DNA of 64,000 bases from Geobacteraceae bacterium (GTDB lineage: Bacteria > Desulfobacterota > Desulfuromonadia > Desulfuromonadales > BM103), in contig JAHEDT010000003.1 in NCBI GenBank assembly GCA_024641085.1, positions 62,001 to 126,000 on the forward strand, read 5' to 3'. Shown one piece after another: positions 295 through 43,976 of the stretch; position 1 is the first letter of the stretch, and each line of letters begins with the position of its first letter. A program made the position numbers and the translations under genes. Below the pieces are notes generated by a model. It was given only the letters and a program-made list of their open reading frames with translations, made no database searches and had not been told where the DNA came from.

Positions 295-687
295 TCAGTA
301 TTTGTCAGTAGCGGAAGAGGTTTTTGAGAGACGATCTATGATATTGAACATCTCTTTGAGCCGAAACGGTTTACGCAGGATATCGACGGCACCTGCCTGG
401 CGAGCCTGATCAAGCAAGGCCGATTCACTAAAGCCGGTCATCATTACGACCTGAGCGCCTGGGCAGAATCCGCGGATTTCGGCCAGGCTCTCGACGCCGT
501 TTTTACCGGGCAGCTTGATGTCCATGAAGGCAATGTCGTAACAGATGCTCTGGAATTTCCTGATCGCCTCCTCACCGGTACGTGCAATGTCCACCTCACA
601 GTCATGCACCCCCAGAGCTATCATGAGGCTCTCGGCAAAATCCGGATCGTCCTCGACGACCAGTACCTTGGTTGTTTCTTTAGCCAT
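295..687 (-). CDS. Single-domain response regulator (CheY-like)
   Basis: This 130-residue protein is a receiver domain with no output domain. The acidic pocket E12/D13/D14, phospho-acceptor D56 (AFMDIKLPG), the T/S switch in VVMMTGF and the lysine in LRKPF are all present. The ATG at 687 is chosen because GGGAG lies 6 bases upstream; a longer reading would add 19 residues of non-receiver sequence. It would take phosphate from a partner kinase, probably the gene that begins at 219 on the same strand. With no DNA-binding domain it probably acts by protein contact or in a phosphorelay. Confidence 0.85.
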   Translation of the reverse strand: MAKETTKVLVVEDDPDFAESLMIALGVHDCEVDIARTGEEAIRKFQSICYDIAFMDIKLPGKNGVESLAEIRGFCPGAQVVMMTGFSESALLDQARQAGAVDILRKPFRLKEMFNIIDRLSKTSSATDKY

Positions 688-1116
688 CGGCCACTCCCGG
701 CAGACGTGAAGAACTGGCAATATATATATCACAGAAGAGCGCATGCAGCCACATTAATGCTTTGCAATGCGGCCTGCAGAAAGGCAACCGCCTTTCATTT
801 TACGGGGGACTCAAACGTTTCATAAGAATACGATGAGTTATCCAACACACAATCGGGCTGCTGACTTTGCAGGTGAGATCTGCTGTGGTAAGGTAATCCC
901 ATGTTATGTCATCCATTGACTGTACCGAGGAGGGCTGCCTGCATGCAACGTCATCACACCATTCAAATCGTCAATCACCATAGCCAGCCGATCAGCTTAC
1001 ATCCCGCGCCGGTGTTATCAAGCTGCGCCACCTCATTGAACCGGCGAGACCGGATCATGAGCCGAGTCACTGTTCTGTCAATATTTACAGCAGTCTCTGA
1101 CCTCGAGCTGTAAGCT
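688..1116. other. Intergenic region between divergent response regulator and comEC
   Basis: No convincing gene is seen here. A small perfect hairpin (GAAAGGC, loop AACC, GCCTTTC) lies at 779-796 and is followed on the plus strand by ATTTTAC. It is too short to call a terminator with confidence. Promoters for both divergent genes should lie here, but no clear -35/-10 pair was found. Confidence 0.4.
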
Positions 1117-33529: not shown

Positions 33530-34345
33530 ATGGACTGGAAATCATTTTTTGACCGGCTGGGGATGAACGGGACACGCTGGCAATGGCGCATGATGAGGTG
33601 GGAGCGCAGCCTGCGGGCCATCCTGCAGGGGAGTCCATCGGGGGGCAACTGGTCGGCAACCAAGCTGCTCATCGCAGTCAACCTGCTGCTTTACGGCCTG
33701 ATGGTCGTCCAGGGTATCGGCGGTGGACTGGGACCATCCACCCTGCTCAACCCAAACAGCTATTTGCTGGTGCATAACGGAGCCCAGTACTGGCCCCTGG
33801 TGCTCACCGAAGGTCAGTGGTGGCGCTGCGTAACCTATGCATTCGCTCACGGTGGGCTCATACATCTCGCTTTCAACATGATCGTCCTCTACCAGGTCGG
33901 CCCCATGATCGAGGAGGAGATCGGCACGGTTCGCTTCGTCATCCTCTATGTACTGACCGCCCTGACAGCAACCTTCGCCGGTTTCGGCTGGCAAGTTCTC
34001 TACATCAAACAGTGGGTTCCCGTCGTTGGCGCTTCAGGATCCCTGTTCGGCCTGATCGGCTTCGCCATTTCCTACTATCATCGGGTCGGCGGGACCATGG
34101 CCCACAATTATCGGAATTTCATGCTGCGCTGGGCGGCGATCGCTTTCGTCTTCGGCCTGCTGGTCGGGGCCGACAACGCCGGGCACCTTGGCGGGGCCAT
34201 TGGCGGGGCCCTGTTCGGTCTGGTACTGCCGATCGGTATACGAGGTCGACAGGTATTGCGCCACGTCTTCAATGGCCTGGGCATCTTCTGTATTCTGTTG
34301 ACCGTTGTCAGCCTATTGATGATGGCCATCTCGTGGGCGCGTTGA
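33530..34345 (+). CDS. Rhomboid-family intramembrane serine protease
   Basis: The 271-residue protein has the catalytic Ser in VVGASGSLFGLIGF and the catalytic His in ADNAGHLGGAIGGALFGL, with the HxxxN element in HGGLIHLAFNMIVLYQVG. It has six or seven membrane helices. The N-terminal 40 residues are basic and Trp-rich and lie in the cytoplasm. It cleaves single-pass membrane proteins within the bilayer. The substrate is unknown; the membrane-spanning subtilase at 38459 is a speculative candidate. It is monocistronic. Confidence 0.92.
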   Translation: MDWKSFFDRLGMNGTRWQWRMMRWERSLRAILQGSPSGGNWSATKLLIAVNLLLYGLMVVQGIGGGLGPSTLLNPNSYLLVHNGAQYWPLVLTEGQWWRCVTYAFAHGGLIHLAFNMIVLYQVGPMIEEEIGTVRFVILYVLTALTATFAGFGWQVLYIKQWVPVVGASGSLFGLIGFAISYYHRVGGTMAHNYRNFMLRWAAIAFVFGLLVGADNAGHLGGAIGGALFGLVLPIGIRGRQVLRHVFNGLGIFCILLTVVSLLMMAISWAR

Positions 34346-38458: not shown

Positions 38459-40672
38459 ATGAAGCGTATTCAGTTGCAACTGCTGCTGGCATTGTCTCTG
38501 GGCATCTGTCTCCTGCCGGTATCGAGTATCGCGGCTGAGGGTGACATTGTCGGCCCATATTTACAAAATGAGCTGGCCAAAGCCGGGCCAGCTGAAGAAT
38601 TCCCGGTTATCGTGCGAATGAAAAACCCGCTGGCCGTTGGTTCTTTTGCCATTCAATCCCGCAAACAGGGACCCGCAAGGGCACAGGCCAGGGCAAACCT
38701 GGTCCATGCTCTGAAGGCGCGGGCCAAGCAGACTCGACAACCCATGCAAAAGCTGCTCGACCGTCACGGGGTGGCCAGACCTCGAGACCTCTGGCTGGTC
38801 AACGGCATGGCGCTGCAGGCGACCAGGGCCCTGATCGAAGAGATGGCAGTGATGCCCGAGGTGGCATCGATCGTGCTCGACCAGACAATTGAGCTCCCAG
38901 TCAGTGTCAGCACCCAGGCTTCGGGAGCGTCCGAACCGAATATCGCCATGGTCAAGGCTCCGGAACTCTGGGCGCTGGGCTATGCCGGTCAAGGAGTCAC
39001 GGTGGCCATCGTGGATACCGGAGTCGACATTAACCACCCTGACCTCGGGCCAAAATGGCGCGGCGGTACCAACAGCTGGTTCGACCCGCATGGCGAGCAT
39101 CCTTCGACGCCTGCCGACAGGGATGGCCACGGAACCCAAGTCACAGGTCTGATCCTCGGCGGCAACCACAGCGGAGCATATATTGGCGTTGCACCTGACG
39201 CCGAATGGATCGGGGTAAAAATATTCGCCGATGACGGATCGGCAACGAGCAGCTCAATCCATGCCGGTTTCCAGTGGTTACTCGATCCGGACGGAAACCC
39301 TGACACCGACGATGCCCCGGACATCGTTCACAACTCCTGGGGCTACGATGAATTCCCGGATACCTGCAGTGCGTTCAGCAGGGAATTTCAAAGCGATGTC
39401 CAGGCACTGAAAGCGGCGAACATTGCCGTCGTTTTTGCGGCCGGCAACACTGGTCCGGATGAAAACAGCAGCATTGCACCGGCCAATTATCCGGAAAGCA
39501 TTGCCGTCGGTTCAGTGGGAACGTTCACCTCTGCCACCCTGATCAGCTCATTCAGCGCGCGCGGACCTTCTGCCTGCGACGGCACGATCTATCCCGAGCT
39601 TGTGGCTCCCGGGTTCGAACTCCTGACGAGTGACCTGACGGCTGGCGGGGTTGTCCTCGATGCTTACAGCGTGGTTGCCGGCACCTCTTTTTCAACGTCA
39701 CATGTCAGCGGCGTGATGGCCCTGCTGCTCAGCGCGGACCCTGACATGACGGTCGCGACGCTTGAAACAGCACTCAAGCAATCGGCATCAGACCTCGGCC
39801 AGCTAGGAGCAGACAATACCTATGGGTACGGTCTTGTTGATGCCCTCTCAGCCTTCAATTACCTGACTGGTCAGCGGGATATTGATGTGACAGATTCGAT
39901 CAGCCCTGAAAGAGATCATCTGGTTGCTTTCGGCAGCGTAACTCCGGGCGGGGAAGCCCTGGCAAGTGTTTGGGTGCGGAATACCGGTAGCGTGCCCTTA
40001 TCCTTCGGCACTACGGATGTCAGCAATGTCCGCGAGCCGTTCAGCATAAGTAGCGATGCATGCAGCAATGCGCTTCTGCCCGCTGGAGCAGTATGCACGA
40101 TTGGCCTGCGCTTCGCCCCGGCCTCGCCGGGGGATTCAACCGGGAGCCTGACCATCCTCTCCAACGCCGTCAATGAAGAGCATGTGACCGTCACCCTCTC
40201 CGGCACCGGCAATACACCACCGGTAGCACCCAAACTGCTGGCTCCAGTCGATGGGGCAACCGTGGGCACCAGTGTGACATTCCGCTGGTTGCCGGCCAGT
40301 GATACGGATGGGGATAGTGTGGCGCAATTTTTAGTCTATTCCCCCCATGCCGATTTTTCTTTCTCGACCACACGCGAGGTCGAGACAATTCCTACCGTCG
40401 CGCTGGCCAGCGGGATTTTCTTGTTAGGAACTCTGTGCGTGATGGTTACCCGCCGTCGCCGAGGCATGACGGCCAGCCTGGTTATAACAACCCTGTTGCT
40501 GTTGATGGTCTCCTGCGGAGGAGGTGGTGGAGGGGCCGAGTCGCCGGCAAAGACCCAGTCGACAACGGTTAGCGGGCTCGTCTCAGGGGTGACATATTAC
40601 TGGAAGATGACGGCCAGAGACAGTCATGGAGCGGAGACGCAAAGTGTCGTCAGAACTATCCATGTGCAATAG
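38459..40672 (+). CDS. S8 subtilisin-like protease with internal membrane/lipobox insertion
   Basis: The 737-residue secreted protein has a signal peptide (LQLLLALSLGICLLPVSSIAA), an inhibitor-like propeptide (about 30-145) and an S8 domain. The triad is Asp in IVDTGVDINHPDLG, His in DGHGTQVTG and Ser in AGTSFSTSHVSG. An Ig-like region (about 475-590) is followed by an FN3-like domain that starts at about 592 (PPVAPKLLAPVDGATVGTS) and ends TYYWKMTARDSHGAETQ. Between its halves lie two hydrophobic segments (about 648-663, 672-686) joined by RRRR, ending VSC686 and six Gly. That part looks like a C-terminal sorting signal and a lipobox inside the domain. ATG 38459 has AAAGGA upstream. Confidence 0.88.
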   Translation: MKRIQLQLLLALSLGICLLPVSSIAAEGDIVGPYLQNELAKAGPAEEFPVIVRMKNPLAVGSFAIQSRKQGPARAQARANLVHALKARAKQTRQPMQKLLDRHGVARPRDLWLVNGMALQATRALIEEMAVMPEVASIVLDQTIELPVSVSTQASGASEPNIAMVKAPELWALGYAGQGVTVAIVDTGVDINHPDLGPKWRGGTNSWFDPHGEHPSTPADRDGHGTQVTGLILGGNHSGAYIGVAPDAEWIGVKIFADDGSATSSSIHAGFQWLLDPDGNPDTDDAPDIVHNSWGYDEFPDTCSAFSREFQSDVQALKAANIAVVFAAGNTGPDENSSIAPANYPESIAVGSVGTFTSATLISSFSARGPSACDGTIYPELVAPGFELLTSDLTAGGVVLDAYSVVAGTSFSTSHVSGVMALLLSADPDMTVATLETALKQSASDLGQLGADNTYGYGLVDALSAFNYLTGQRDIDVTDSISPERDHLVAFGSVTPGGEALASVWVRNTGSVPLSFGTTDVSNVREPFSISSDACSNALLPAGAVCTIGLRFAPASPGDSTGSLTILSNAVNEEHVTVTLSGTGNTPPVAPKLLAPVDGATVGTSVTFRWLPASDTDGDSVAQFLVYSPHADFSFSTTREVETIPTVALASGIFLLGTLCVMVTRRRRGMTASLVITTLLLLMVSCGGGGGGAESPAKTQSTTVSGLVSGVTYYWKMTARDSHGAETQSVVRTIHVQ

Positions 40673-40737: not shown

Positions 40738-42084
40738 TTAAATCTGGCCATCCTGACGCAGTTTGGCCAGGTGAGACTTGATGTTCTCCATTGCGAAGGG
40801 CCGCAGATGCCGATCGATTGCATGGTAAATGATGTCGAGCATTTCTGTTTGCGTTTTACCCCTGACATGCAATTCCTGGATGGCCGTCTCCCGTTCGCGA
40901 CGGTGTTGCAAGGTGGCGCTCAGACGGCAGGTGCCTCGCATCGGCATTCCATGTGACGGAATGATCACGGCAGGACCGAGCTTGATAATCCTTTCCAGGG
41001 TCTGAAAATACGCCGCCATGTCCCCTTCCGGGGCGGCGATGACCACCGTACCCACACTCTGGATCAGATCGCCGACGATGAACCAGCGAAGGGATTCGGG
41101 TGCCAGAGCCAGTTGGCCGGCATCATGACCTGGCACTTCATGCACCAGAACAGCCTCGCCTTTCCAGTTCGTCAACCTGTCACCTTCCTGCTTTATCTCG
41201 ACTTTAAGCCCGGCAAAGTAGTCGGAGCCCAGTTTTTGAACTATGCGGCTCCGGGTGTCGGCACTCATCCAGATCGGCACATCGAGTTGCCTTGCAAGGT
41301 CCGGTGCATGCTCATGATGGTCAGGGTGATGGTGCGTCAAAAACAGGGCTCTTACATGATCCCGCATCAGGGTCCGTAATAAATTCTCCAGAGTTTCAGG
41401 AGAATCAGGCGATGGATCAACCAGAATCTTCGAAGTATGCTCGTCTCCAATTAAAAAAGCGTTCGTTCGATTTGCCGGAGGGATGCTGTTGCAAGGGACC
41501 GGCAGTATACGCAACCCGCTGAGCGGTTCCAGTATGGGGACGTAATGGTCTTCATCAAACTGCGGAGAAAGATCGCCGAAATCGTAACCCTGCGGGTTTC
41601 GGTGCAACTCTTCGAGAACCCAGCGCAGCGGAGGGACCATCAACGCATCCCCCCGGTGGAACCTCTCAAGTGATTGCTGGGGAGTCTCCCAGAAAGTATC
41701 TGCAATCTCACCGGGATCCAGCGTGAAAACCGGAAGGGTTTTCAGGTCAATCCGGAAGAAGTACAGGCGGAAGCGCGCCGGGACGAGGGCTGGCGCCAAC
41801 GCCTCGGCAAGCAGCTTAACCGAGGTGACCTGACCGGAAGCGATGCCTGCGGGCAGATCGTAACCGAGTTCCTCCTGGATTTCCCGTACCAGCGCATGCA
41901 TTTTTTGACCACCCCAGTCGAGGAGAAACCGGGCCGGGTGTTGTGACACGGGATCTTCAGCGTCAATTTTTCCGCCGGGGAAGGAGTCATACCCCGGAAA
42001 AGCATGCAGATGCGACTGCCGGCGGACCAGGAAGAAACGGTCTTCATAACAGAAAACAGCCGCTACGGAATCGATGACTCGCAT
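40738..42084 (-). CDS. NUDIX - metallo-beta-lactamase fusion hydrolase
   Basis: In this 448-residue protein, residues 1-165 form a NUDIX domain (FPGGKIDAED, later VREIQEELGYDL) in which the Nudix box is split by an insertion of about 25 residues, as in the NUDT19/acyl-CoA group. Residues 190-370 form an MBL domain (TNAFLIGD, THHHPDHHEHAPDL, VPGHDAGQLAL, FIVGDLIQS) of the LACTB2 type, with a C-terminal helical winged region. It may hydrolyse a CoA- or nucleotide-linked compound and then a thioester, but this is inference. It is monocistronic. Confidence 0.85.
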   Translation of the reverse strand: MRVIDSVAAVFCYEDRFFLVRRQSHLHAFPGYDSFPGGKIDAEDPVSQHPARFLLDWGGQKMHALVREIQEELGYDLPAGIASGQVTSVKLLAEALAPALVPARFRLYFFRIDLKTLPVFTLDPGEIADTFWETPQQSLERFHRGDALMVPPLRWVLEELHRNPQGYDFGDLSPQFDEDHYVPILEPLSGLRILPVPCNSIPPANRTNAFLIGDEHTSKILVDPSPDSPETLENLLRTLMRDHVRALFLTHHHPDHHEHAPDLARQLDVPIWMSADTRSRIVQKLGSDYFAGLKVEIKQEGDRLTNWKGEAVLVHEVPGHDAGQLALAPESLRWFIVGDLIQSVGTVVIAAPEGDMAAYFQTLERIIKLGPAVIIPSHGMPMRGTCRLSATLQHRRERETAIQELHVRGKTQTEMLDIIYHAIDRHLRPFAMENIKSHLAKLRQDGQI

Positions 42085-42555: not shown

Positions 42556-43284
42556 TCATCTTTCCCTTAACTTCGTCAACAACCTCAGTAGCTCCAGGTA
42601 CAGCCAGACCAGGGTCACGATCAGGCCGAACGCCGCGTACCACTCCATGTAGCGCGGGGCAACGCCATCGCCGCGTTCGATGAAATCGAAGTCGAGGACC
42701 AGGTTCAGGGCGGCGATCACGACAACGAACAGGCTGAACAGGATGCCGACCGTGCCCGATTCATGGATCAACGGCATATGCCAGCCGAACATGCCGCCGA
42801 TCATGCTGACCAGGTAGACCAGGGCAATCCCGCCGGTTGCAGCGACAACTCCCAACTTGAAATTCTCAGTGGCCCGGATCAAGCGTGATTTGTAGGCCAG
42901 CAGCAGGGCAAAAAGTGTCCCGAAAGTCAGTCCGACCGCCTGGATGACAATCCCCGGATAGCGTGCTTCGAAAAAGGCGGAGATACCGCCTAGGGCAAGG
43001 CCCTCCAGAACAGCGTAGATCGGGGCGGTTTTCGGGGCCCATTGCGCCTTGAAGATAGTGATTATGGCGAAGACCAAACCGCCGATCAGGCCGCCCAGCA
43101 GCCACGGCTGTACCGCCGCAGGGCCCTGGTTGTAGAAAAGGTTCCAAGTATAGGCGGCACCAATGACGACCAGCGCCAGCAGAGCTACGGTTTTATTCAC
43201 CGCCCCCTGCAGGGTCATCGTTTCGACGCCCGGGAGGGCCGTAGTGTAAAGACTTTCCTTCATCATCGGGTTGGTTGTACGCAT
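42556..43284 (-). CDS. Bax inhibitor-1/YccA-family membrane protein
   Basis: The 242-residue protein has seven hydrophobic segments and typical BI-1 features: APKTAPIYAVLEGLALGGISAFFEARYPG, a conserved Asp-rich middle region (ALNLVLDFDFIERGDGVAPRYMEWYAAFGLIVTLVWLYLELLRLL). Members are pH-sensitive calcium-leak channels or stress proteins. It is monocistronic with its own terminator and probably lies in the inner membrane. Confidence 0.9.
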   Translation of the reverse strand: MRTTNPMMKESLYTTALPGVETMTLQGAVNKTVALLALVVIGAAYTWNLFYNQGPAAVQPWLLGGLIGGLVFAIITIFKAQWAPKTAPIYAVLEGLALGGISAFFEARYPGIVIQAVGLTFGTLFALLLAYKSRLIRATENFKLGVVAATGGIALVYLVSMIGGMFGWHMPLIHESGTVGILFSLFVVVIAALNLVLDFDFIERGDGVAPRYMEWYAAFGLIVTLVWLYLELLRLLTKLRER

Positions 43285-43409
43285 CGTGATTCCTCGCTCG
43301 ACATTTTCAGTGAATGCTACTCTATCGCTCCAGCGATCTGGGCATGTGAAATCGCTGCAAGATGTGCGCTGGGCGAAGTCCGACTCAGTTTAACACGCTA
43401 AAACTTGCC

Positions 43410-43976
43410 TTACAAACCCAGCTCGTCCGCGATTCCCTGCATTGCCTGCAACGCAATATCACAGAATTCATCGAGGGGGATGCCAGCCGTTTCGCATTCG
43501 CGAATAATATCGCGGTTGGCTCCAGCGGCAAAGGCCCTTTCCTTGATGCGTTTGCGAACCGATTTCGGCTTGACGCTTGCCAGTCTTTTATCCGGATAGA
43601 CCAGGGCTGTTGCGACAATCAATCCGGTGATCGTCTCCCCGGCCGCGAGCAGGTGCTGAAATTGGGTCGTGCGCCGCTCTCCGGGGTGGGCCTGCTCGTT
43701 GTGCAGGCGAATCGCTTCAATAATCTCCTCATCAACCCCTTGCCCGCGGAGAATCTGGGCCGTCTCACGGGTATGGACATCGAGATCAGTGTGCGTTTCA
43801 GCGTCGAGATCGTGCAGCAGCCCGGTCAATCCCCATTTATCCGGATCCTCGCCAAGTCGTTCGGCCAGAGCCCTCAAGACGGCCTCAGCGGCCAGGCAGT
43901 GGTTCAGCATGTTCTGACTTTTGATGTGCTGACCGACCAGTTCCAAAGCTTCTGATCGGGTGATTCCGTAATTCAT
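43410..43976 (-). CDS. HD-domain hydrolase
   Basis: The 188-residue protein has the HD motif: LNHCLAAEAVLRALAERLGEDP, GLLHDLDAE, then EAIRLHNEQAHPGERR. It resembles HDIG/HDc phosphohydrolases related to nucleotide or ppGpp-like metabolism; the substrate is unknown. It is the third gene of a unit with the DjlA-like and YbaK-like genes (48 bases after djlA-like). GGAG-type site is not obvious. Confidence 0.85.
   Translation of the reverse strand: MNYGITRSEALELVGQHIKSQNMLNHCLAAEAVLRALAERLGEDPDKWGLTGLLHDLDAETHTDLDVHTRETAQILRGQGVDEEIIEAIRLHNEQAHPGERRTTQFQHLLAAGETITGLIVATALVYPDKRLASVKPKSVRKRIKERAFAAGANRDIIRECETAGIPLDEFCDIALQAMQGIADELGL

What the first reader, a model, noticed from the sequence alone, without database searches (positions are those of the whole stretch)
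38459..40672. Subtilase with a membrane/lipobox insertion splitting an FN3-like domain
An FN3-like domain starts at about residue 592 and finishes at 737, but about 55 residues between its halves consist of a hydrophobic helix, RRRR, a second helix and VSC followed by six Gly. The first helix resembles a C-terminal sorting signal (IPT-type) and the second a lipoprotein signal with Cys686 at the lipobox. Such an internal signal could anchor the protease or be cleaved by a rhomboid-like enzyme; a rhomboid gene lies 4 kb upstream. The frame is open throughout.
Basis: inference. Interest (0 to 1): 0.6.

Follow-up and report, generated by a model that had tools for sequence, protein, structure and literature searches.

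The report
Lipoprotein signal inside a fibronectin-like domain
A secreted bacterial protease ends in a fibronectin-like domain interrupted by a membrane hairpin and a second, internal lipoprotein signal, an arrangement kept in many related proteins, which suggests that the protein is cut in two and then held to a membrane lipid by its own two re-joined halves.

Summary
The protein at 38459-40672 is a Geobacteraceae S8 subtilase whose last domain is FN3-like. AlphaFold2 closes strands from residues 592-641 and 700-736 into one FN3 domain (pLDDT 91-98; best PDB matches Z 11.5). Between them lie helix, RRRR, helix, VSC686 and six Gly. It is not chance or a chimera: I recovered 102 distinct modules from related genomes, all within 22 residues of the C-terminus, on subtilases, beta-propellers, sorbosone-dehydrogenase-like proteins and small two-FN3 proteins. 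In 100 of 102 the second helix ends in Cys preceded by Ala, Ser or Gly; in those 100 the loop carries at least two Lys/Arg. The other two carry a signal-peptidase-I-like site instead. NCBIfam already holds a related model, NF058595 'lipo-invert putative C-terminal anchoring domain'; the window scores below its cut-off, and my paper searches found nothing on it. Best explanation (inferred, untested): helix 1 returns the chain to the cytoplasm, helix 2 acts as an internal lipoprotein signal, Lgt/LspA lipidate and cut at Cys686, and the 52-residue lipopeptide stays bound as the missing strands of the FN3 domain. The rhomboid link is not supported: the two genes are neighbours only within the genus.

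The parts
38459..40672 (+). S8 subtilase with split FN3 domain, 737 aa
   Evidence: 76% identical orthologue with the same insert in the same genus
38459..38536 (+). N-terminal signal peptide (residues 1-26, type I by appearance, no lipobox)
   Evidence: sequence; 85 of 87 carriers with a complete N-end show no N-terminal lipobox by regular expression
38987..39832 (+). S8 catalytic domain (residues 177-458); D186, H224, S410, N330 present
   Evidence: Pfam PF00082 186.6 bits; D186, S410 and N330 invariant, H224 90% or more, in 14 aligned subtilases
39893..40204 (+). choice-of-anchor D / VesB-like Ig domain (residues 479-582)
   Evidence: NF012200 47.3 bits, over cut-off; PF22544 30.4 bits
40226..40393 (+). 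FN3 first half, strands A, B, C and C'/D (residues 590-645)
   Evidence: AlphaFold2 strands, pLDDT 91-98 over residues 588-637
40394..40450 (+). hydrophobic helix 1 (residues 646-664)
   Evidence: sequence; predicted helix; 17-residue hydropathy at least 1.6 in 89 of 100 modules
40451..40462 (+). RRRR turn (residues 665-668)
   Evidence: sequence; at least 2 Lys/Arg and net positive in 100 of 100 modules
40463..40513 (+). hydrophobic helix 2, signal-peptide-like h-region (residues 669-685)
   Evidence: sequence; predicted helix; resembles N-terminal lipoprotein signals of the same genome
40514..40516 (+). lipobox Cys686
   Evidence: invariant in 16 of 16 and 14 of 14 subtilases; 100 of 102 modules
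40517..40534 (+). six-glycine linker (residues 687-692)
   Evidence: sequence; Gly at +1 in 92 of 100 modules (two mis-picked rows L229 and L236 removed)
40535..40669 (+). FN3 second half, strands E, F, G (residues 693-737)
   Evidence: AlphaFold2 strands, pLDDT 93-98; fn3 partial match 699-731

Best explanation
The module is a built-in, self-assembling lipid anchor. The subtilase is exported by its N-terminal signal peptide. Helix 1 stops transfer and brings the chain back to the cytoplasm, where RRRR is the n-region of a second, internal lipoprotein signal. Helix 2 re-enters the Sec machinery; Lgt puts a diacylglyceryl group on Cys686 and LspA cuts before it. This leaves an N-terminal chain (protease, Ig-like domain, FN3 strands A-C/D, membrane hairpin) and a 52-residue lipopeptide (Cys, Gly6, strands E-F-G). 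The lipopeptide completes the FN3 beta-sandwich non-covalently, so the protease is held on a lipid. For release from the inner membrane and passage to the outer membrane or surface, helix 1 would have to be cut as well, by an unknown protease. SHOWN here by computation: the split FN3, its conservation, the conserved lipobox and charged turn, C-terminal position, modularity, Lgt, LspA and a type II secretion secretin in the genome. INFERRED: export, topology, lipidation, cleavage, re-association, final location.
For: AlphaFold2 closes one FN3 domain across the insert in the window protein (pLDDT 91-98 in both halves, about 58 in the hairpin) and in the two-FN3 class. VIA-align places residues 18-170 of the model on FN3 structures, Z 11.5, rmsd 2.1-2.5, 91-96 residues. 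Insert-removed model hits uninterrupted FN3s contiguously, iE down to 5e-18. In the 100 lipobox modules -1 is A 43, S 42, G 15 (two mis-picked rows removed; their sequences). Turn Lys/Arg median 4, Asp/Glu median 0. The internal signal looks like ordinary N-terminal lipoprotein signals of the same genome, e.g. ...FMAACGGGGGSG. Carriers of at least four unrelated kinds. FN3 halves are conserved while the hairpin changes freely but keeps its character: window vs L039 dN 0.056 and 0.094 for the halves, 0.346 for the hairpin, dS about 0.6. L229 and L236 replace the lipobox by a signal-peptidase-I-like site, which points to cleavage as the shared feature. LspA and Lgt present. Engineered FN3 fragments cut in the CD loop re-fold to a functional domain when mixed, though less stable (Tm about 45 vs 78 C) (PMC11666773, passages).
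Against: No experiment shows lipidation or cleavage. Modules were found with a profile trained on Cys-containing members, so Cys conservation is partly built in (though two Cys-less ones were found). Two modules have no lipobox, so a lipid is not needed in every carrier. The residue at -3 in the window is Met, and Gln in 6 of 100 modules, not ideal for a lipobox. After LspA cleavage the N-terminal chain would still hold the membrane hairpin, which by itself would anchor the protein in the inner membrane and make the lipid superfluous unless helix 1 is cut. Helix 1 is only weakly hydrophobic in 11 of 100. I know no proven bacterial case of an internal type II signal peptide. Other subtilases of the order, e.g. 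L109 and L119, do without the module.
Confidence: 0.55

Rival explanations
1. Uncut hairpin anchor. The two helices simply tether the protein in the inner membrane, the FN3 domain closes on the periplasmic side of an intact chain, and Cys686 is lipidated without cleavage or not at all.
For: The AlphaFold2 model is of one intact chain and closes well. Two of 102 modules lack the lipobox but keep helix - basic turn - helix.
Against: Cys with a small residue at -1 in 100 of 102 modules is more than a tether needs; an Lgt/LspA site is normally cut; a plain hairpin would not need the Gly-rich post-Cys linker that ordinary lipoproteins of the same genome also carry.
Confidence: 0.17
2. Helix 1 plus RRRR is a C-terminal sorting signal of the CTERM kind, cut by a dedicated intramembrane protease; the lipoprotein piece behind it is either secondary or acts apart from the protease.
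For: Helix 1 is Gly/Ala-rich and followed by Arg, as in CTERM tails; weak PVV-CTERM match 9.8 bits. The two-FN3 class of carriers lies 5-32 kb from an exosortase in 13 of the 14 genomes where I compared both on one contig.
Against: No exosortase at E<=1e-10 in the window's 99.5% complete genome and no rhombosortase over cut-off; subtilase carriers lie 0.7-1.6 Mb from the exosortase in 7 of 7; no fixed motif before helix 1; it leaves the conserved second FN3 half unexplained. The myxosortase (CPBP) kind of enzyme was not searched for.
Confidence: 0.13
3. One reading: internal signal cut by the rhomboid encoded 4 kb upstream.
For: The rhomboid is present in nearly all genomes of the order, where the module is common.
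Against: Neighbourhood conserved only within the genus; same rhomboid in module-negative relatives, absent at E<=1e-20 from six module genomes outside the order; not a rhombosortase by score.
Confidence: 0.04
4. Artefact: assembly chimera or chance insertion of a lipoprotein gene start into an FN3 domain.
For: None found.
Against: 102 distinct modules in dozens of genomes and several protein kinds.
Confidence: 0.01

Closest known systems
NCBIfam NF058595 invert_tail, 'lipo-invert putative C-terminal anchoring domain' (release 20, June 2026)
   Same: Matches TM1 - basic turn - TM2 - Cys - Gly and part of the FN3 halves: window 642-703 to model 25-86; 16 of 16 aligned members match at E<=0.01; one module of my set (G104, L216/L244) passes its cut-off at 37.8 bits.
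   Different: The window scores 32.4 bits against a cut-off of 37; only 2 of 277 class genomes have a match over the cut-off, and one of those (G062, L243) does not span the FN3 first half or helix 1 (model 44-96). The tool shows only the name, not the curators' description, so whether they saw the split FN3 is unknown to me.
MYXO-CTERM / myxosortase
   Same: C-terminal module with a conserved Cys, a hydrophobic helix and an Arg cluster; lipidation of the Cys and surface anchoring proposed (PMC11980579, passages).
   Different: There Cys precedes the helix in inverted topology without a defined lipobox (same paper); here a second helix restores normal topology and a normal lipobox, and FN3 strands follow.
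GlyGly-CTERM / rhombosortase and VesB
   Same: Secreted protease, VesB-like Ig domain (PF22544), then a C-terminal membrane signal.
   Different: No Gly-Ser motif before a terminal helix; the signal is internal; no rhombosortase over cut-off in this genome.
Bacterial lipoprotein signal peptide (type II, Lgt/LspA)
   Same: Basic n-region, hydrophobic core, small residue before Cys, Gly-rich tether; same look as N-terminal lipoproteins of this genome.
   Different: It lies about 50 residues from the C-terminus, behind a second helix and inside a beta-sandwich domain.
Engineered split FN3 / split monobody
   Same: FN3 cut in one loop re-assembles from two fragments (PMC11666773, passages; Dutta et al. 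2005 cited there, not read).
   Different: Natural, with a membrane signal in the gap. In the subtilase class the gap is one strand later than the engineered CD loop by the model; in the two-FN3 class it appears to be the CD loop.

Membership tests
NF058595 invert_tail | score at or above the curated cut-off of 37 bits | tested here: not met
   31.5-32.4 bits
NF058595 invert_tail | helix - basic turn - helix - Cys - Gly arrangement near the C-terminus | tested here: met
type II (lipoprotein) signal peptide | basic n-region, hydrophobic core, lipobox ending [ASG]C | tested here: met
   RRRR, TM2, V-S-C686; -1 A/S/G in 100 of 102 modules
type II (lipoprotein) signal peptide | N-terminal position | tested here: not met
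   Cys is residue 686 of 737
type II (lipoprotein) signal peptide | lipidation and LspA cleavage in the cell | not testable with these tools
   enzymes present in the genome, reaction not shown
FN3 domain | seven-stranded FN3 fold | tested here: met
   AlphaFold2 plus VIA-align Z 11.5 over residues 18-170 of the model
FN3 domain | Pfam fn3 gathering score (25 bits) | tested here: not met
   12.5 bits, C-half only
S8 subtilase | S8 profile and Asp-His-Ser triad | tested here: met
   PF00082 186.6 bits; D186, H224, S410
GlyGly-CTERM / rhombosortase | C-terminal GlyGly-helix-basic tail | tested here: not met
   the protein continues about 70 residues past helix 1; no GlyGly-CTERM model listed at E<=10
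GlyGly-CTERM / rhombosortase | rhombosortase over cut-off in the genome | tested here: not met
   best 43.3 bits vs 84
PEP-CTERM / exosortase | exosortase in the genome | tested here: not met
   none at E<=1e-10 in G000
MYXO-CTERM | Cys ahead of a single C-terminal helix | tested here: not met
   Cys follows the second of two helices

The most novel reading that the evidence does not exclude
A natural split-domain anchor: one gene makes a pre-protein that an internal lipoprotein signal divides into an effector chain and a short C-terminal lipopeptide, and the two are re-joined only by FN3 fragment complementation, so that a whole family of unrelated secreted proteins becomes two-chain lipoproteins. 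Because the tether is non-covalent, it could also be released.
Probability: 0.45. Interest if true: 0.82.

Novelty: new variant of a known kind. Interest (0 to 1): 0.62.

Why it matters
If processing occurs as proposed, lipoproteins need not be defined by their N-terminus, and bacteria use domain fragment complementation, so far an engineering trick in my knowledge, as an anchoring mechanism. Standard annotation would miss it: a predictor that reads only N-termini calls these proteins secreted or polytopic membrane proteins. The carriers include proteases and, in another class, proteins linked to exosortase / exopolysaccharide loci, so the surface proteome of Desulfuromonadales (Geobacter and kin, studied for extracellular electron transfer) may be undercounted. 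Globomycin and a single C686A change make it directly testable.

Tried and rejected
Rejected: assembly chimera and chance (102 modules). Rhomboid link. Dedicated sorting enzyme: rhombosortase over cut-off in 25 of 136 and exosortase in 48 of 136 genomes of the order, neither in the window's own genome; the CPBP/myxosortase family was not searched for. A separately encoded E-F-G lipopeptide gene ('Rosetta stone') was looked for among partial profile hits in the fetched loci and not found, apart from the frameshifted G072 copy. OzpA/OmcZ protease papers were listed but not read; I did not compare OzpA.

Led nowhere: paper searches for 'lipo-invert' (0 papers), internal or C-terminal lipobox (11 papers, listing only, none seen to bear on this), internal signal peptide terms (listings only), NF058595 and similar (2, off topic), Geobacter subtilase lipoprotein (0), exosortase with FN3 and Geobacter (2, listing only). 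So 'not in print' rests on these searches of an open-licence library alone. Foldseek alone gave only weak E-values (6e-4 at best), because of the insert; VIA-align was needed.

Limits: breadth outside the phylum was not measured. Module counts by genome (at least 72 of 277) were made by hand from the listing, which is cut off at its end, with G014 added from the full ORF in L012 and G072 left out as broken. The search behind one search used a profile that contains Cys and Gly. Carrier classes: the group of 10 is joined by sequence similarity; only L044 and L045 of the three I scanned (with L198) show a propeller. Of 80 named loci I read the tails of 40: 6 carry the module (L103-L107, L141).

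Full report
What is there. The window gene 38459-40672 (+) encodes a 737-residue protein with an open frame throughout. Domains: signal peptide; S8 protease 177-458; Ig-like choice-of-anchor D domain (about 479-582); then an FN3-like domain, which Pfam sees only as a weak C-terminal half. The FN3 halves are separated by residues 646-692: helix, RRRR, helix, VSC686, six Gly. The nearest named relative, 76% identical over 718 residues, is from a Geobacteraceae MAG (L103); gene order around it is the same in that genus.

One FN3 domain, split. AlphaFold2 on a 16-row alignment of the C-terminal region gives four strands before and three after the insert with pLDDT 91-98, and two helices at about 58. 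VIA-align puts model residues 18-170 on FN3 structures at Z 11.5 with 91-96 residues aligned; Foldseek's own E-values are weak, 6e-4 at best. A profile made after deletion of the insert columns finds uninterrupted FN3 domains in other proteins as one contiguous match (11 hits, the best iE 5e-18). The small two-FN3 proteins fold in the same way, with the hairpin apparently one strand earlier.

Conservation. A profile search of 277 genomes of the class gave matches at E<=1e-6 in 103; many are half matches. By hand I count near-full modules in at least 72: 66 of 136 genomes of the window's order and 6 of the other 141. In a phylum sample of 345 genomes, 15 have matches at E<=1e-8; near-full modules lie in seven other genomes of the order besides the window's own and in three genomes of one distant genus. 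From the fetched loci I took 102 distinct near-full modules. Each ends within 22 residues of the protein's C-terminus. Cys ends the second helix in 100; the residue before it is Ala 43, Ser 42, Gly 15 (the two rows where the script picked a wrong Cys, L229 and L236, were removed after reading them). The turn has 2-6 Lys/Arg in all 100. The glycines are common but not required: for example L200 and L203 read CSDDVED. The sequence of the hairpin changes fast (57% identity to L039, dN 0.346) while the FN3 halves are held (89% and 84%, dN 0.056 and 0.094), as expected if only hydrophobicity, charge and lipobox matter in the former and the fold in the latter.

Carriers. 43 of 102 are S8 subtilases. 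40 fall in a group of mostly about 300-residue proteins, those scanned having FN3 domains. 10 are in a group that includes beta-propellers (L044, L045), 4 in a group with a glucose/sorbosone dehydrogenase (L089), 4 in a group without a clear domain (L229, L231), and 1 has GLUG motifs (L223). So the module travels with different exported domains, as an anchor would. Of 87 carriers with a complete N-end, 2 (L211, L215) show an N-terminal lipobox-like motif, so the internal one is as a rule the only one.

Signal character. N-terminal lipoprotein signals of the same genome, picked up by the same NCBIfam model, look the same as the internal one. Lgt, LspA and a type II secretion secretin are present. 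In L229 and L236 the Cys is gone and the second helix ends in a signal-peptidase-I-like site (ATHA-GEK in L229; less clear in L236), while relatives L231 and L234 keep a lipobox. This fits a second helix that is an internal signal peptide, and warns that lipidation is not universal.

Mechanism. The simplest chain of events is stop-transfer by helix 1, re-insertion by helix 2, Lgt and LspA action at Cys686, and retention of the E-F-G lipopeptide as the missing strands of the FN3 domain. FN3 domains cut in the CD loop are known to re-form from two peptides, at a cost in stability (PMC11666773, passages read). Nothing here shows that the cut occurs. If it does, the N-terminal chain still carries the hairpin, so a further cut near helix 1 is needed for an outer-membrane or surface location; I could not name the enzyme. 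Rhombosortase and exosortase are not required, since the window's genome has neither at the thresholds used.

Rhomboid. The gene at 33530-34345 is a GlpG-like rhomboid below all rhombosortase thresholds. Relatives at E<=1e-20 are in 152 of 277 genomes, including module-free genomes of the same family such as G002-G004 and G007-G010; six module genomes outside the order have none. On single contigs the two lie 0.8-2.3 Mb apart (6 of 6 compared; for G044 the module compared is of the two-FN3 class).

Relation to what is known. NCBIfam NF058595 'lipo-invert putative C-terminal anchoring domain' evidently covers the same kind of thing; all 16 aligned members match it weakly and one of my modules passes its cut-off, but the window does not (32.4 of 37 bits). 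I saw only the model's name. No paper on it was found in ten searches of the held library. MYXO-CTERM is the nearest published system in working: Cys, helix, Arg cluster, proposed lipidation and cleavage by myxosortase, but in inverted topology and without a defined lipobox (PMC11980579, abstract and passages). What this work adds is that the insert sits inside one FN3 domain whose second half is always the end of the protein, that the lipobox is its most conserved part, and that the arrangement recurs on unrelated exported proteins.

Verdict. Real, conserved, and in working a new variant of C-terminal anchoring; the two-chain lipoprotein reading is likely but untested.

Noticed in passing
L056:9701-10579 (-) and 13 other loci compared: The about 300-residue two-FN3 carriers of the module lie 5-32 kb from an XrtA-type exosortase in 13 of 14 genomes where both were compared on one contig; in L056 the gene is next to PrsK/PrsR. 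Subtilase carriers are 0.7-1.6 Mb away (7 of 7). This suggests a role in exopolysaccharide/exosortase loci.
   Followed up: partly
L239 (G072:C1 about 3104194-3104689): The two FN3 halves are in different frames, with the break in the poly-G tract that encodes the glycine linker: phase variation by slippage, decay or sequencing error.
   Followed up: partly
L229:805-2574 (-), L236:1573-3243 (+): Internal signal of signal-peptidase-I type in place of the lipobox, in a carrier family whose other two sampled members keep the lipobox.
   Followed up: partly
L194 (G029:C112 about 42979-43932): Two module genes back to back on opposite strands, ends 21 bases apart.
   Followed up: no
L047 (8683-10713, -): This subtilase reads NGT where the others have HGT at the catalytic His, so it may be an inactive protease that keeps the anchor.
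   Followed up: no
window 40738-42084 (-): By eye a Nudix-like N-terminal part fused to a metallo-beta-lactamase-fold part with HHHPDH; neighbour of the subtilase also in G001.
   Followed up: no
window 40194-40672 against L033, L023, L029, L243: The NF058595 model also scores ordinary N-terminal lipoproteins with CGGGG, including one over its cut-off (G062, L243), so annotation by this model alone may mislead.
   Followed up: partly
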